From contig JAFVEW010000242.1 of the NCBI GenBank assembly GCA_017475805.1, forward strand, positions 1 to 5,324: a DNA stretch of 5,324 nucleotides, in the 5' to 3' direction. Position numbers and translations under genes: made by a program. Positions 1,231 to 5,300 of this stretch are shown here, piece by piece (within the stretch, counting starts at the first letter, position 1; each line of letters opens with the position of its first letter). This DNA comes from Synergistaceae bacterium. Lineage in GTDB: Bacteria > Synergistota > Synergistia > Synergistales > Aminobacteriaceae. The notes below the pieces were generated by a model that had not been told where the DNA came from, made no database searches, and saw only the letters and a program-made list of their open reading frames with translations.

Positions 1231-1278
1231 CTTTAATTAAGTAGGAATTAAGAAATAGAAAGATTTTAATTATGCCCG

Positions 1279-1287
1279 TGTTAGAAT
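1279..1287 (+). promoter_or_regulatory. Extended -10 promoter of the small peptide transcript
   Basis: TGTTAGAAT is an extended -10 (TGn plus TAGAAT). No good -35 box is seen 16-19 nt upstream. The predicted start near 1294 coincides with GGAGAGG (1295-1301), which is exactly complementary to the loop of the terminator at the other end of the same transcript. That coincidence is part of why I favour this site. Confidence 0.45.
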
Positions 1288-1294
1288 AAGCTAC

Positions 1295-1395
1295 GGAGAG
1301 GCATTTTGAAATTTGATTTTTGAATTTCAGAGTGAGGCTTACAGGGGAACACCCCAAGTAACCCGAAAAATTTTCGAGCGAAAGGAGGTGTTAGC
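1295..1395 (+). promoter_or_regulatory. Structured 5' leader of the peptide mRNA, with candidate Shine-Dalgarno sequestration
   Basis: About 100 nt of leader holds several self-complementary elements. GGAGAGG (1295-1301) can pair with CCTCTCC (1576-1582). TGAAATT/AATTTCA (1307-1313 with 1323-1329) forms a hairpin with a 9-nt loop. TGAGGCT (1333-1339) can pair with AGCCTCA (1531-1537). GGGG-aaca-CCCC lies at 1344-1355, and CGAAAA/TTTTCG forms an arm pair at 1364-1376. The Shine-Dalgarno AAAGGAGGTG (1381-1390) sits 7 nt before the GTG start; its 3' half plus spacer, GGTGTT (1387-1392), is fully complementary to AACACC (1348-1353). The pairings are read from sequence; that they form and control translation is inference. 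The leader matches no riboswitch consensus I know. Confidence 0.45.
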
Positions 1396-1497
1396 GTGAA
1401 AAAAATTATTCAGCTTCTGCTAATAATAAAACTCGTGAAGTCCGTAGCTGAACTTACACGAGCCATCGCGGATTTAGTCCACGAAATTAAGCGCTAA
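1396..1497 (+). CDS. 33-residue cationic amphipathic peptide, candidate type I toxin
   Basis: A GTG-initiated 33-codon ORF ends in TAA at 1495-1497, 7 nt after the near-perfect Shine-Dalgarno AAAGGAGGTG. The product begins MKKIIQLLLIIKLVKSV and continues with an amphipathic half ending in HEIKR. It has 7 Lys/Arg against 3 Asp/Glu. Hydrophobic residues at 10, 13, 17, 20, 24, 27 and 31 follow an exact 3-4 spacing, so a single membrane-seeking or self-associating helix is likely. Length, charge and amphipathicity resemble type I toxins such as TisB or Fst, but I see no clear sequence match to a named family. It has its own promoter and terminator and lies opposite a predicted antisense RNA whose terminator is built into this coding sequence. 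The main alternative is a Leu/Ile/Val-rich leader peptide for the downstream permease, though that gene appears to have its own promoter past the terminator. Confidence 0.68.
   Translation: MKKIIQLLLIIKLVKSVAELTRAIADLVHEIKR
1422..1462 (-). terminator. Minus-strand intrinsic terminator inside the peptide ORF
   Basis: On the minus strand CTCGTG, a one-base bulge and AAGT pair with ACTTCACGAG around a 10-nt loop, giving ten base pairs. TTTTATTATT follows immediately (1431 down to 1422). On the plus strand the same hairpin is not followed by a T-run, so it is directional. It faces the promoter at 1606-1614 and would end that transcript. Confidence 0.6.
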
Positions 1498-1516
1498 ACC
1501 TTATTAGTCAAGGTTT
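1496..1516 (+). other. Hairpin directly after the peptide ORF
   Basis: AAACCTT and AAGGTTT form a perfect 7-bp stem with a 7-nt loop. It begins within the peptide stop codon and has no T-run on either side, so it is not a terminator. It may protect the mRNA 3' region or be a recognition element for the antisense RNA, which carries the same hairpin. Confidence 0.5.
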
Positions 1517-1568
1517 CACATGAAACGAGGAGCCTCAATTCCACGCTTCAGTGAGCCTTAAATATCAA

Positions 1569-1606
1569 CGTCTGACCTCTCCCAGACGGTTTTATCTCTT
1601 TATTTA
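1569..1606 (+). terminator. Intrinsic terminator of the peptide transcript
   Basis: CGTCTG (1569-1574) and CAGACG (1583-1588) form a perfect 6-bp stem with an 8-nt loop acctctcc, followed by gttttatctctttattt. It would end the peptide mRNA at about 310 nt. Seven of the eight loop bases are complementary to GGAGAGG at the predicted 5' end, and ACCTC in the loop also matches GAGGT within the Shine-Dalgarno. Confidence 0.7.
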
Positions 1607-1614
1607 TTATAGCA
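1606..1614 (-). promoter_or_regulatory. Extended -10 promoter for the antisense RNA
   Basis: Read on the minus strand this is TGCTATAAT, a perfect extended -10 consensus (TGn plus TATAAT). The best -35-like hexamer, TTTAAC, is at 19 nt spacing and weak. The only thing it can serve in this window is the antisense transcript across the peptide gene, because the next minus-strand gene start (kinase, 1184) lies beyond the terminator at 1422-1462 and has its own promoter. Confidence 0.55.
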
Positions 1615-1620
1615 TGATAG

Positions 1621-1746: not shown

Positions 1747-3348
1747 ATGTTTTTATTGAACTTTGGCAATAGCGACAAACGAAAACTACGCAGAGAACTT
1801 ACGCCGCTTAATGTTTGGTCGCTGGCTTTCGGCTGTGTTATCGGCTGGAGTGCTTATGTTATGCCTAGCGGACTTTTCCTGCCGAGTGCCGGGCCGCTTG
1901 GAACTATAATAGCTATGGAGCTTGCAACTGTCGTAATGTTAATAATTTCATACAGTTACAGCTTCATGATAAGAAAATTTCCGATGACAGGCGGCGAATT
2001 TATTTACGCTAAAATGGCTTTCGGAGATTGGCACGGATTTTTTTGCGCATGGTTTTTAAGTCTTTCATATCTTTCTGTTATCCCGCTGAATGCTACAGCT
2101 TTGAACTTAATCATGAGGGCAATGTTCGGGAACTTATTTAAGTTTGGATTTCATTACACTGTCTCCGGCTATGATGTTTATCTCGGCGAAATGATTATAG
2201 CTTTAGGAGCTATTGCTATTTTATTTTTTATAACTTCAAAGGGAATTTTAGCGACAGGCAAGCTGCAAACTTTCATGGTTTTTATCTTGCTCGGCGGAAT
2301 TTTTATTTTAATCGGCGCGGCTGTTTTGAGTCCTGCAGCAAAAGCCTCGAATCTTCATCCGATGTTTCGTCCTGCTACGTCGACTTTTACAAAAGGAATT
2401 TTAGCTCAGATTATCGCGATTTTTGTAACGGGGCCGCAGTCATTCGTAGGATTTGACACAGTGCCGCAAGTTATCGAAGAAGCAAAATTTTCTTCCGACA
2501 AAGTTAAAGTCGTCATGGACACAAGCATAATAATGGGAAGTTTTGTCTACGTAGCTTTGACAGTGCTTGCATGTTCAGCGTTCCCTGAAGGTTATTCGAG
2601 CTGGTTTGAATACATTAACGATATTCCTCATTTATCAGGCTTCCGCAGTATAGCAACTCTTAACGCTGCCTATACGGTCATGGGAACTGCAGGACTTGTC
2701 GTAATATTTTTGTCAGTTATAGCGGCAATGCTTACGGGTATCGTAGGATTTTACACGGCGACTTCAAGACTTTTATATGCAATGGCTCGCGACAGAATGA
2801 TACCCGCATGGTTTGAAAAACTCAGCGATACAGGTATGCCGATTAATGCAGGAATTTTCTGCGCTTCTATAGCGGCAATAACTTCTCTTTTAGGACGCGC
2901 TGTTTTAGGCTGGGTGTTCGACATGGCATCGCTTGGCGGAGCTATTGGCTTTGCTTATACATGTATGGCGGCGTGCAAATACGCTATTGCTGAAAAACGA
3001 AAAGACATAGCGATTTTAGGTTCATTAGGCGCGGCATTGTCAGGAGTAATGGCCTTGCTTTTATTCGTACCTATTGAAGGCTTGAACGTCTCATTGAGTC
3101 AAGAATCATATATTTTATTAATTTTATGGACAACACTCGGCGTTGCGTTCCATGTTTGGATAGGACTTGAAGCTAAAAAGAGAGACGAATATGAAAACGC
3201 CGAAGAAATTATAAAAGCATCATTAGAAAACATAGATTTAACTCAAGAAGATTTTTCAGCCCCGATAAGAGATTTCAATGCTGAATGGGAATGGGGAAGC
3301 CTCCAAGACATACACGAACACAACAACAGCGACGGCGAAGAAAAATAA
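1747..3348 (+). CDS. APC-superfamily amino-acid permease
   Basis: This 533-residue integral membrane protein should import or exchange an amino acid or related amine across the inner membrane, driven by an ion gradient or counter-substrate. It shows the expected run of about 12 hydrophobic segments up to residue 475. The unwound TM1 motif GCVIGWSAYV is at 29-38, followed by a GP-rich loop. The conserved TM6 segment FVGFDTVPQVIEEAK is at 233-247, and the APC signature SRLLYAMARDRMIPAWF at 340-356. A hydrophilic, mostly acidic cytoplasmic tail of nearly 60 residues (476-533) ends the protein; the usual APC length is 430-500. The ATG at 1747 follows AAAAGGA by 12 nt, and the next in-frame Met is already inside TM1. 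Family is certain; substrate cannot be read from sequence. It is a single-gene unit with its own promoter and terminator. Confidence 0.93.
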   Translation: MFLLNFGNSDKRKLRRELTPLNVWSLAFGCVIGWSAYVMPSGLFLPSAGPLGTIIAMELATVVMLIISYSYSFMIRKFPMTGGEFIYAKMAFGDWHGFFCAWFLSLSYLSVIPLNATALNLIMRAMFGNLFKFGFHYTVSGYDVYLGEMIIALGAIAILFFITSKGILATGKLQTFMVFILLGGIFILIGAAVLSPAAKASNLHPMFRPATSTFTKGILAQIIAIFVTGPQSFVGFDTVPQVIEEAKFSSDKVKVVMDTSIIMGSFVYVALTVLACSAFPEGYSSWFEYINDIPHLSGFRSIATLNAAYTVMGTAGLVVIFLSVIAAMLTGIVGFYTATSRLLYAMARDRMIPAWFEKLSDTGMPINAGIFCASIAAITSLLGRAVLGWVFDMASLGGAIGFAYTCMAACKYAIAEKRKDIAILGSLGAALSGVMALLLFVPIEGLNVSLSQESYILLILWTTLGVAFHVWIGLEAKKRDEYENAEEIIKASLENIDLTQEDFSAPIRDFNAEWEWGSLQDIHEHNNSDGEEK

Positions 3349-3360
3349 AGTTAGAAATGA

Positions 3361-3407
3361 GGAGTTAGGAGTTAGAAAATAAAAATTTCTGCTCCTAATT
3401 TTTTTTT
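3361..3407 (+). terminator. Intrinsic terminator of the permease gene
   Basis: TTAGGAG (3365-3371) pairs with CTCCTAA (3392-3398), with an inner AGAAA/TTTCT stem (3374-3378 with 3386-3390) and a short A-rich loop, followed by nine T (3399-3407). It starts 13 nt after the permease stop. The left arm is part of a tandem GGAGTTA heptamer (3361-3374). The minus-strand side lacks a T-run, so it gives little termination for the convergent serpin gene. Confidence 0.8.
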
Positions 3408-3411
3408 ATTA

Positions 3412-4623
3412 TTACTTATCGAACGTTTGTTTTCCTGCGAATAAAATTGTTCGTGTGTAATCGTCAACTATGAAATATTCAAAAGGACTGTCGGCATGGA
3501 AGACTGCTTTAGGTTTTACTTGAGGCGCGACAGCAGTAGCTTTGACCATCACGACAGCAGTAGCAGCGGCGGCTTCGGTTTTTTCTTCGTCGACGTCAAT
3601 GAATGTCTGGTGAATAACTTGGTCGATTTTTAGTTTTTCGTCTTTAGTAATCCCTGAGAAATTCGCATCATCAGAGAAAGCCAATTTTACTCCGAGCGAA
3701 GCAAAAAGATTTTTGAGTTCGTAGCGTTCTTCAGTTTTGAATTTAGGAATCCATAAATCAACGTTATATTCACGCATAGAAGCAACTAAATCATTAAAAA
3801 TTTCAGCGTTAAGTTCAAAAAATTTCAAGTCGTCTTTTAATTCGAGAGTGCCGGAATAGCCTGCAACCTTAGGCGGCAAGAAAATTATCATTGAAAATCT
3901 TCCGCCTTCGTAGGGGATACGAATAATTTTATTTCCGTCTCGTTCAGCGTAGAGGAAATCTCCGCGCTTTTTCATCATGTCGACTTCCGTAACGAGACAG
4001 CCGCCGGGATAAAATTTTTCTTTTGAAGTCATTTTTTTGTTGAATTTTGACTCCCAGCCTGCATTAAAATAAACAGCGTTCGTCAAAATCATCTGAGTGT
4101 CAGGTTCAACCTTTTTTAATAACTCAGGGATTTTTGCGTTAGTTTTGTCGCTGACCCATTTATTAATTGTCTTGCGTGAGTTTTCTGCGTCGCCTCTGAA
4201 GTCTAATTCTTTAGCAGTGCTTCCGTAATTCATGAGCAAATTTTCTTTGAAAAGGTCTTTAAGCGTTAAGCCTTCGCGCAGCCATACACGATTAGCCGAC
4301 GTAAAAGCCTTTTCAGCCTCGATGTCTTTCATGTAATTGCCGAGTTCAGCGTGAAAATCTTGACCGAAGCCTAAAGATTCTTCAATTTCGCGTGCTGTGT
4401 TGCCTTCTGCTCCTGCGTAGGCCATTCCGAAAGCTGAGAGAATGCTGTAGGGCGAGAAGAAATAATCTCCTGACTTGTTTCGCATTATTTTAGCGGCATT
4501 GAAGGCGAAATTATTTATATTTTCGTTAGCTGTCATAGCAAAGGACTCCTTGACTGAACTGAAACATGAAATTAAAAAAATGATTATAAAAAACCACGTT
4601 AGAATTATTCGCAATATTTTCAT
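3412..4623 (-). CDS. Exported serpin (serine protease inhibitor, family I4)
   Basis: This 403-residue protein is a suicide inhibitor that traps serine (sometimes cysteine) proteases through its reactive-centre loop. Residues 1-29 form an export signal; LISC at 17-20 fits a lipobox, so it may be a surface lipoprotein, though cleavage after SFA (27-29) is possible. Serpin landmarks follow in order: FSPYSILSAFGMAYAGAEGNT (56-76), TNAVYFNAGW (181-190), FSGITKDEKLKIDQVIHQTF (322-341), the hinge EEKTEAAAATAV (346-357), and PFEYFIVDDYTRTILFAGK (380-398). The small-residue hinge indicates an inhibitory serpin, but Lys348 takes the P15 place that is normally Gly. The loop between hinge and PF anchor is about 7 residues longer than in alpha-1-antitrypsin and contains an ATAV...VK duplication. 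The start is set by AGGAGG at 4635-4640, 11 nt before the ATG. It is convergent with the permease, divergent from the next genes, and has no partner in an operon. Confidence 0.95.
   Translation of the reverse strand: MKILRIILTWFFIIIFLISCFSSVKESFAMTANENINNFAFNAAKIMRNKSGDYFFSPYSILSAFGMAYAGAEGNTAREIEESLGFGQDFHAELGNYMKDIEAEKAFTSANRVWLREGLTLKDLFKENLLMNYGSTAKELDFRGDAENSRKTINKWVSDKTNAKIPELLKKVEPDTQMILTNAVYFNAGWESKFNKKMTSKEKFYPGGCLVTEVDMMKKRGDFLYAERDGNKIIRIPYEGGRFSMIIFLPPKVAGYSGTLELKDDLKFFELNAEIFNDLVASMREYNVDLWIPKFKTEERYELKNLFASLGVKLAFSDDANFSGITKDEKLKIDQVIHQTFIDVDEEKTEAAAATAVVMVKATAVAPQVKPKAVFHADSPFEYFIVDDYTRTILFAGKQTFDK
3528..3564 (-). repeat. 13-bp direct repeat in the serpin reactive-centre loop
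   Basis: CGACAGCAGTAGC occurs identically at 3528-3540 and 3552-3564, offset by 24 bp (8 codons), so the frame is kept. In protein it gives ATAVVMVK (354-361) followed by ATAVAPQVK (362-370). It lies exactly where the protease bait residues of a serpin are. Confidence 0.85.
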
Positions 4624-4676: not shown

Positions 4677-4705
4677 TTAATATGAAAAAATTTAGAAAAT
4701 ATAAT
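4677..4705 (+). promoter_or_regulatory. Promoter for the small membrane protein genes
   Basis: TTAATA (4677-4682, four of six to TTGACA), a 17-nt spacer and TATAAT (4700-4705) give a good vegetative-type promoter with start near 4712. A second TATAAT at 4712-4717 has no fitting -35. Because transcription would start after 4682, the ATG there cannot be the start of the following gene. I saw no convincing minus-strand promoter for the serpin in the shared 136-nt gap; CAAAAATTTTTG (4641-4652) next to the serpin ribosome site is a perfect 12-bp palindrome of unknown role. Confidence 0.5.
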
Positions 4706-4759
4706 TTCATGTATAATTCATTTATTCCCAAAAAGAAAGGAGGAAAGAAAAAATTAAAA

Positions 4760-5011
4760 ATGGAACGTGAATGTGTGTATCAAGATTTTTATGACGTTGA
4801 CCAACGTTACAGAGACGAAAAGACAGCTCACTCTATCGAATGTAACGCTTTGAAGGTAGATTTTTCAATAGCACGTGTTGAGAATATTCTTTCTGAAATG
4901 AAGGATGAAATAAGAGAAATGAATGCGAGAATTACCAATATGGGCTGGACTATAACGCTGGCAATCTCTATAGTTGGAATCGTTTTAGCATTGTTAAGCG
5001 TCTATAAGTAA
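4760..5011 (+). CDS. Small coiled-coil/single-span membrane protein, paralog 1
   Basis: This 83-residue protein is of unrecognised family. It has a soluble, highly charged N-terminal two thirds with a likely coiled-coil segment (about 35-60) and one C-terminal hydrophobic span at about 63-82 ending in VYK. The layout (amphipathic helix, then a terminal span) recalls phage XhlA-type holin-associated proteins, but that is topology only. It is paralogous to the next gene: both begin MExExVYxxxYD and both have NMxW at residues 60-63. The frame is open upstream to an ATG at 4682, but paralogy, the predicted start of transcription near 4712 and the AAAGGAGG at 4736-4743 all favour the ATG at 4760, although a 16-nt spacing is long. 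It is probably co-transcribed with the next gene, 25 nt downstream. Confidence 0.75.
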   Translation: MERECVYQDFYDVDQRYRDEKTAHSIECNALKVDFSIARVENILSEMKDEIREMNARITNMGWTITLAISIVGIVLALLSVYK

Positions 5012-5036: not shown

Positions 5037-5300
5037 ATGGAAACTGAATATGTTTATAAAAATGCTTACGATATTGAAGTCCATAGACTTGAAGAAAGAA
5101 TGGATAGCACGCTTTCAAGAATCGAGTCTCGTATGGACGCTTACTTGGCTCGTATGGACGCGAGGGATGCCAGAATGGAAGGACGGCTCGATACTATGGA
5201 AGCGAAACTTGGTAATATGAATTGGGCACTTAACATGTTGCTGGCTGTAGCAGGTATTGCGGTGGCAGGCGTAAGTATATATCTCGCAATTATTCATTAG
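5037..5300 (+). CDS. Small coiled-coil/single-span membrane protein, paralog 2
   Basis: This 87-residue paralog of the preceding protein is also of unrecognised function. After METEYVYKNAYDIE comes a coiled coil at about 17-60 made of near-exact heptads with Met or Leu at fixed positions (RMDAYLA, RMDARDA, RMEGRLD, TMEAKLG). One membrane span follows at about 64-85, rich in Ala, Val and Ile. A 13-bp repeat (5128-5140 and 5149-5161), 21 bp apart, underlies two of the heptads, so the coil may have grown by heptad duplication. AAGAGGG at 5021-5027 lies 9 nt before the ATG. Most likely it oligomerises through the coil while anchored by its C-terminus; whether the coil is cytoplasmic is not visible. 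Confidence 0.8.
   Translation: METEYVYKNAYDIEVHRLEERMDSTLSRIESRMDAYLARMDARDARMEGRLDTMEAKLGNMNWALNMLLAVAGIAVAGVSIYLAIIH

What the first reader, a model, noticed from the sequence alone, without database searches (positions are those of the whole stretch)
1279..1614. Candidate undescribed type I toxin-antitoxin locus between the kinase and the permease
Within about 335 bp there is a complete two-RNA unit. It has an extended -10 promoter, a structured leader, a near-perfect Shine-Dalgarno, a 33-residue cationic amphipathic peptide and a plus-strand terminator. Opposed to it are a perfect minus-strand extended -10 and a minus-strand terminator. Convergent RNAs overlapping at the 3' end are the layout of known type I modules such as txpA/RatA and bsrG/SR4. 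I do not recognise the peptide as Hok, Fst, Ldr, TisB or TxpA.
Basis: partly seen in the sequence, partly recalled or inferred. Interest (0 to 1): 0.85.

Follow-up and report, generated by a model that had tools for sequence, protein, structure and literature searches.

The report
Hidden toxin-antitoxin RNA family in Synergistota
A short stretch between two ordinary genes of a rumen-type bacterium is one copy of an apparently undescribed, many-copy genetic unit in which two opposed RNAs, one encoding a tiny membrane-active-looking peptide and one overlapping it as antisense, look like a toxin and its antidote.

Summary
The window resembles rumen Synergistaceae. Its kinase/permease gap is 562 bp, against about 100-140 bp without the element in four relatives. 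Related peptide loci occur in 45 of 185 Synergistota genomes (about five on weak matches), dispersed and in tandem, and once within a phage structural gene cluster. Of 115 copies, 86 were analysed: sense extended -10 in 72 (shuffles 1.1); opposed extended or near-extended -10 in 70 of 82 (shuffles 3.0); an antisense-strand intrinsic terminator inside the ORF in 74 (main peptide type 68 of 78, against 6.5 of 78 in synonymous recodings). The peptide is under purifying selection (pN/pS 0.45), cationic and amphipathic. The RNA's first bases covary with its own terminator loop (13 fully Watson-Crick types; 0 of 2000 permutations); the start codon pairs with the stop region. Fourteen further copies mostly agree (9 to 12 of 14 per feature). 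Best reading: a new type I toxin-antitoxin family with TxpA/RatA-like convergent layout and hok/AapA-like 5'-3' closure. No RNA or growth data exist; predicted folding does not show that 3' trimming frees the ribosome site.

The parts
1279..1287 (+). sense extended -10, TGTTAGAAT; predicted start of RNA about 1294
   Evidence: pattern in 72 of 86 copies, shuffles mean 1.1
1295..1301 (+). 5' box GGAGAGG, complementary to the terminator loop
1295..1594 (+). sense RNA as folded (predicted, about 300 nt)
   Evidence: z -4.55; ends inferred
1383..1388 (+). Shine-Dalgarno AGGAGG
1396..1497 (+). 33-aa cationic amphipathic peptide, GTG start
1391..1397 (+). start-codon arm TTAGCGT, paired with 1491-1497 in the minimum-energy fold
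1491..1502 (+). stop-codon arm GCGCTAA plus ACCTT; in the minimum-energy fold ACCTT pairs with the Shine-Dalgarno
   Evidence: the second pairing is only modestly supported across copies
1421..1462 (-). intrinsic terminator of the antisense RNA, inside the ORF
   Evidence: present in 74 of 86 copies
1510..1559 (+). 3' UTR hairpin region
1569..1588 (+). sense terminator hairpin with loop ACCTCTCC
1606..1614 (-). antisense extended -10, TGCTATAAT; predicted start of RNA about 1599
1422..1599 (-). antisense RNA (predicted, about 178 nt)
   Evidence: inferred from promoter and terminator

Best explanation
A self-contained type I toxin-antitoxin module. A sense RNA of about 300 nt encodes a 33-residue cationic amphipathic helix that most likely acts on the cell's own membrane. 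An opposed promoter with a better -10 makes an antisense RNA of about 178 nt that begins with the complement of the sense terminator and stops at a terminator written into the peptide's codons, so it covers most of the ORF and the 3' UTR but not the Shine-Dalgarno; it would act by duplex formation, decay and altered folding rather than by direct masking of the ribosome site. The sense RNA is kept quiet by its fold: its 5' end pairs with its own terminator loop and its start codon with the stop region. Shown by comparison: conserved peptide, both promoters, both terminators, the covarying pairings. Inferred: transcription, repression, toxicity, membrane target, and that opening of the 5'-3' closure activates the message.
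For: Sense -10 in 72 of 86 copies, shuffles 1.1. Opposed -10 in 70 of 82, shuffles 3.0, max 9, hexamer TATAAT in 68 of 76 against 9 of 76 for the sense one. In-ORF antisense terminator in 74 of 86; type A 68 of 78 against 6.5 (max 13) in synonymous recodings, with ATA for 91 of 103 isoleucines in the T-tract against 46 of 162 elsewhere. pN/pS 0.45. 5' box/terminator-loop covariation, 0 of 2000 permutations, 13 fully Watson-Crick types. Start-stop pairing, 0 of 1000. Further copies not used before. Tandem and dispersed copies and a phage copy.
Against: No RNA or growth data. Single-window scans are at chance level. Predicted Shine-Dalgarno accessibility is the same in full-length and 3'-trimmed forms (0.27, 0.28, 0.29) and in a shuffled control (0.26), so release by 3' trimming is not supported. 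In one search the count of copies with 6 bp or more (49 of 86) is reached by the best permutation. The Shine-Dalgarno does not covary with the terminator loop. Non-Watson-Crick cells show no excess of G-U over A-C (10 against 8), so RNA pairing is not separated from DNA-level symmetry by that test. 12 of 86 copies lack the in-ORF terminator by my criteria. No known toxin family is matched.
Confidence: 0.8

Rival explanations
1. An exported, signalling or antimicrobial peptide gene (phenol-soluble-modulin-like or leaderless-bacteriocin-like) in tandem paralogues, with an antisense RNA that tunes it; not directed at the producing cell.
For: Cationic amphipathic helix; sub-threshold PSM hits for one of 15 members and for a consensus-like peptide.
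Against: The PSM hits are far below the cut-off. The message is folded onto itself and opposed by a conserved antisense gene in each copy, which is costly design for a secreted peptide. No dedicated exporter beside the window copy; the surroundings of other copies were not annotated.
Confidence: 0.1
2. A structured regulatory RNA pair in which the ORF is incidental.
For: Strongly structured RNA (z -4.55) with covarying 3' UTR.
Against: pN/pS 0.45 in 335 pairs, 329 with pN below pS; peptide frame kept through length changes; strong ribosome sites.
Confidence: 0.05
3. A miniature transposable element whose terminal inverted repeats give the end-to-end complementarity, with promoters as part of the ends.
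For: Dispersed and tandem copies; 5' end and reverse complement of the 3' end look alike; no G-U excess; the window copy is an addition to a gap that is short in relatives.
Against: Codon-level selection and a codon-embedded antisense terminator. The ends are not symmetric: the loop lies inside a hairpin and the distance from hairpin to the opposed -10 varies from 2 to 27 nt. Target-site duplications were not tested.
Confidence: 0.05

Closest known systems
txpA/RatA and bsrG/SR4 (Bacillus subtilis)
   Same: convergent sense and antisense RNAs overlapping at their 3' ends; small peptide (bsrG/SR4 seen in passages of PMC8309996; txpA/RatA recalled)
   Different: no peptide family match; here the RNA 5' end covaries with its own terminator loop, not known to me for these systems
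aapA/IsoA (Helicobacter pylori)
   Same: 5'-3' long-distance interaction in the toxin mRNA, cis antisense RNA, several loci per genome, 30-residue cationic peptide (passages of PMC6733600, and PMC8309996)
   Different: in aapA3 the 3' end carries an anti-Shine-Dalgarno; here the loop covaries with the 5' end and not with the Shine-Dalgarno, and the box lies about 90 nt upstream of it
hok/Sok
   Same: end-to-end pairing of the toxin mRNA (details recalled; metastable structure of hok mentioned in passages of PMC6733600)
   Different: no Hok-like peptide match; antisense overlaps the 3' half here
TisB
   Same: 29-residue amphiphilic helix with charges on a strip, membrane pore (passages of PMC8309996); the similarity of helix pattern is my impression, not a test
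   Different: no Pfam or NCBIfam TisB match; IstR-1 is encoded apart
msoT1/msoA1 (Microcystis)
   Same: a candidate type I system outside Proteobacteria, Firmicutes and Tenericutes (abstract and passages of PMC12390103)
   Different: Cyanobacteria; sequences were not compared

Membership tests
type I toxin-antitoxin (class) | small peptide gene under coding selection | tested here: met
type I toxin-antitoxin (class) | cis antisense RNA gene with own promoter and end | tested here: met
   sequence level only; transcription not testable
type I toxin-antitoxin (class) | peptide toxic to the producing cell | not testable with these tools
   cationic amphipathic helix only
type I toxin-antitoxin (class) | antisense RNA prevents toxin synthesis | not testable with these tools
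   needs experiment
type I toxin-antitoxin (class) | primary toxin transcript not translatable because of its fold | tested here: inconclusive
   covarying closures for; no predicted release of the Shine-Dalgarno on trimming against
txpA/RatA, bsrG/SR4 | convergent RNAs overlapping at their 3' ends | tested here: met
txpA/RatA, bsrG/SR4 | peptide homologous to TxpA or BsrG | tested here: not met
   no such family in Pfam or NCBIfam scans; no direct sequence comparison was made
aapA/IsoA | 5'-3' interaction in the toxin mRNA | tested here: met
aapA/IsoA | 3' end masks the Shine-Dalgarno directly | tested here: not met
   terminator loop does not covary with the Shine-Dalgarno (422 of 1000), which is itself nearly invariant; a weak anti-Shine-Dalgarno signal just after the stop codon
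hok/Sok | Hok-family peptide | tested here: not met
   no match
TisB | TisB-family peptide | tested here: not met
   no match
miniature transposon | symmetric terminal repeats and no coding constraint | tested here: not met
   coding constraint, ends asymmetric with variable spacing
miniature transposon | target-site duplication | not tested
   filled and empty sites are too diverged to read

The most novel reading that the evidence does not exclude
A phylum-wide, in part phage-carried type I family built on one RNA chassis: a self-closing mRNA (5' end pairing with its own terminator loop, start codon with stop) plus a convergent antisense RNA whose terminator is written into the toxin's codons. 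The chassis carries at least two distinct, interchangeable peptide types, some neighbours in one array bear different end-to-end pairings, and arrays may serve in conflict with phages.
Probability: 0.4. Interest if true: 0.87.

Novelty: new variant of a known kind. Interest (0 to 1): 0.77.

Why it matters
A 2025 paper states that type I systems had been found only in Proteobacteria, Firmicutes and Tenericutes and offers a cyanobacterial locus as the first exception (PMC12390103, abstract and passages). A multi-copy family in Synergistota would add a phylum and about a hundred natural variants. Dual coding (peptide on one strand, the antitoxin's terminator on the other) and 13 fully compensated end-pairing types make it a natural mutagenesis set for the open question of how toxin mRNAs stay silent while they are being made. 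Synonymous-site tuning for an antisense terminator could also serve as a signature for finding type I systems elsewhere.

Tried and rejected
Promoter and terminator scans of the single window gave no excess over shuffles and were replaced by comparative tests. The Rfam STnc450 hit in L093 (29.6 bits, gathering score 37) is an alignment to the terminator region and was set aside; one paper mentions STnc450 (listing only). Pfam DUF1192, PSMalpha, DUF6358, Oscp1, cIII and NCBIfam phage_HTJ and PSM_delta hits are weak or below cut-off. The RNAalifold pairing of the Shine-Dalgarno with the 3' hairpin competes with a local hairpin that covaries well and is not used. G-U excess as proof of RNA pairing: not found. 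Release of the Shine-Dalgarno by 3' trimming: not found. An anti-Shine-Dalgarno just after the stop: only a modest signal (mean 11.93 against 10.87, 0 of 200 shuffles as high; but helices of 5 bp or more in 62 of 86 against shuffles mean 54.2, max 65). BLAST of the element against phage records gave only 25-base hits in 3 records; a relative's element gave 23-base hits in 2 plasmid records and none in phages. Two of three viral-contig patterns gave nothing; the third gave L101 and a chance hit L102. A 40-aa relative found 2 close proteins, both under E 0.1. Spread outside Synergistota was not tested beyond these collections, because the one genome-contig scan went to the permease.

Full report
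WHERE IT IS. The window encodes the N-terminal part of a histidine kinase (minus, 3-1184), the element, an amino-acid permease (plus, 1747-3348), a serpin (minus, 3412-4623) and two small ORFs. No whole genome is held for it. The permease's seven relatives are all Synergistota assemblies, six of seven with red-deer or goat sample names. Kinase and permease lie divergent in four of the seven (L002, L003, L004, L005). The gap there is 139 bp in L002 and 125 bp in L004, read, and about 100-120 bp in L005 and L003 by match coordinates; it is 562 bp in the window. No copy of the element was found by BLAST in these loci. L001 has another gene upstream; the upstream side of L006 was not examined and L007 holds only the permease's end. 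I infer that the element was added to this gap in the window's lineage.

A REPEATED FAMILY. A BLAST of window 1270-1620 against those seven genomes found strong copies (E below 1e-8) in three (G002, G006, G007), often in tandem, and weak or chance-level matches in four. A model of 15 peptides matched 44 of 149 relatives at E 0.01. A broader type-A model matched 44 of 185 genomes of the phylum at E 1e-4 and a type-B model 14 of 185. Only G020 is in the second list alone, so the union is 45 of 185; five of these (G030, G031, G032, G033, G057) rest on weak matches that I did not confirm as copies. Six copies lie in 1.8 kb of G023:C99. From the window and L018-L100 I catalogued 115 copies by peptide match. 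I kept 86 with a ribosome-site score of at least 2.5 and at least 110 nt upstream; the 29 dropped lack a recognised start or site, are broken, or lie at contig ends.

PEPTIDES. Type A consensus: MxxIIKLVKALTELxRAxAELIRxxKx (32 sequences). Type B: MKDFLDGIIKLLQYVSxSATVLEIILRVIRxWxTH (8 sequences). One search adds more distant ones with VAVAGAYATV-like cores. Among type-A pairs of 70-97% identity pN/pS is 0.45 (335 pairs, 329 with pN below pS; these pairs are not independent), with codon-position differences 0.262, 0.132, 0.378; type B gives 0.44 (10 pairs). Net charge is positive in 83 of 85 peptides under 45 aa, mean maximal hydrophobic moment 0.73; the window peptide has +4 and a moment of 0.67, reached by 1.75% of its shuffles. 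No Pfam or NCBIfam family is matched above its cut-off.

TWO PROMOTERS. The sense extended -10 is present in 72 of 86 copies (shuffles mean 1.1, max 4). The opposed -10, with TG zero or one base away, is present 55-190 nt after the stop in 70 of 82 (shuffles mean 3.0, max 9); the same motif in sense orientation occurs there in 25, which I attribute mainly to the next tandem copy. The strict extended form alone is in 35 of 82. The opposed -10 lies 2 to 27 nt after the terminator hairpin, the limit of the search (a few assignments are wrong, for example L037 and L043), so it is not just the U-tract read backwards. Its hexamer is TATAAT in 68 of 76 copies, the sense hexamer in 9 of 76, as expected if the antisense promoter is the stronger.

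AN ANTISENSE TERMINATOR WRITTEN IN CODONS. On the minus strand the ORF holds a stem-loop followed by a T-tract in 74 of 86 copies (type A 68 of 78). Recoding the same peptides with synonymous codons from the family pool gives 6.5 of 78 (max 13 in 40 rounds); permuting synonymous codons within each gene gives 10.7 (max 17); the plus strand gives 1 of 78. The T-tract uses ATA for 91 of 103 isoleucines against 46 of 162 elsewhere in the same 59 peptides. In the window the antisense RNA would run from about 1599 to about 1422.

A SELF-CLOSING MESSAGE. The first bases of the sense RNA are complementary to its terminator loop: 6 bp or more in 66 of 76 usable copies (5 of 86 lacked a recognised sense -10 and 5 a terminator). 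For 33 distinct pairings without GGAGAGG the mean score is 16.9 against 12.1 in permutations (max 14.0, 0 of 2000 as good); the Shine-Dalgarno against the same loops is no better than permuted (422 of 1000). Thirteen distinct fully Watson-Crick 7-mers occur. Some neighbours in one array carry different pairs (L035+799, L035+1501), others the same (L049). The start-codon region pairs with the stop region better than permuted by mean score (12.83 against 11.33, max 12.30, 0 of 1000), though the count of helices of 6 bp or more, 49 of 86, equals the best permutation. The 3' UTR with terminator has at least two doubly compensated sequences at 16 of 17 predicted pairs (73 copies), the leader at 7 of 12 (76 copies); sequence relatedness is not corrected for. 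The window RNA folds better than all 200 shuffles (z -4.55); its minimum-energy form pairs 1295-1301 with 1576-1582, the start codon with the stop codon, and the Shine-Dalgarno with 1498-1502. Against a simple trimming switch: predicted Shine-Dalgarno accessibility is 0.27 full-length, 0.28 without terminator, 0.29 without 3' UTR, and 0.26 with a shuffled downstream part; the start codon is 0.30 against 0.44 in that control (76 copies). For the window copy alone the Shine-Dalgarno value rises from 0.39 to 0.57 without the 3' UTR. Pseudoknots are outside this model.

FURTHER COPIES. Fourteen copies not among the 86 (13 from the phylum searches, plus L101, which I had already looked at) show a sense -10 in 12, hairpin with opposed -10 in 12, a 5' box/loop helix of 6 bp or more in 11 (weak in L140 and L144) and the in-ORF antisense terminator in 9.

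A PHAGE COPY. L101, a 9,990-bp IMG/VR contig, has terminase, portal, minor head, major head, neck and tail-sheath genes (six ORFs scanned) with a module on the opposite strand between portal and minor head genes, including a 12-bp antisense terminator stem. Its host is not known.

WHAT IS KNOWN. No held paper has both 'type I toxin-antitoxin' and 'Synergistetes'. Nothing in the listings describes such a family in this phylum; several of these lists were capped (20 of 271, 6 of 23, 15 of 246, 10 of 194), most entries were seen only as title and start of abstract, and the library holds open-licence papers only. I saw passages of PMC12390103, PMC8309996, PMC6733600, PMC5473847, PMC9318921 and PMC5521070. 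T1TAdb itself could not be searched. Rfam gives nothing for the window at E 1 and, for six relatives, only a tRNA above its gathering score.

VERDICT. That this is a real, selected, two-RNA, peptide-coding module is close to certain on comparative grounds. [quoted passage not shown] It works like txpA/RatA in layout and like hok and aapA in closing its message; by the tests available it is a member of none of these families.

Noticed in passing
window 1239-1260 and about 3350-3378; L018 on both sides of the copy at 2367; L002 about 9914-9950: Degenerate repeats like AAGTAGGAGTTAGGAAGTAGGAA recur in intergenic DNA of these genomes, flanking one copy of the element on both sides and lying just upstream of it in the window.
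   Followed up: no
window 4682-5011 and 5037-5300: Two adjacent small ORFs look like paralogues: a charged coiled-coil-like part followed by a hydrophobic C-terminal segment; only weak Pfam hits. A relative of the first lies in L007.
   Followed up: no
window 3412-4623: A bacterial serpin (PF00079, E 1.3e-99), also in L007.
   Followed up: no
L101 about 2630-2930 (minus): A complete module inside a phage head-gene cluster, opposite in orientation; it suggests phage transfer or a role in phage conflict.
   Followed up: partly
L058, L083, L086, L090 leaders: In some copies the leader ends in CCCCCC-GAAA-GGGGG over the ribosome site, with an alternative GGGG partner upstream: a possible local on/off switch.
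   Followed up: no
G048:C1, 2,728,333 bp: A genome with one very long contig and two copies; from its size I recall it as Fretibacterium fastidiosum, which no call confirms. A cultured host would allow RNA mapping.
   Followed up: no
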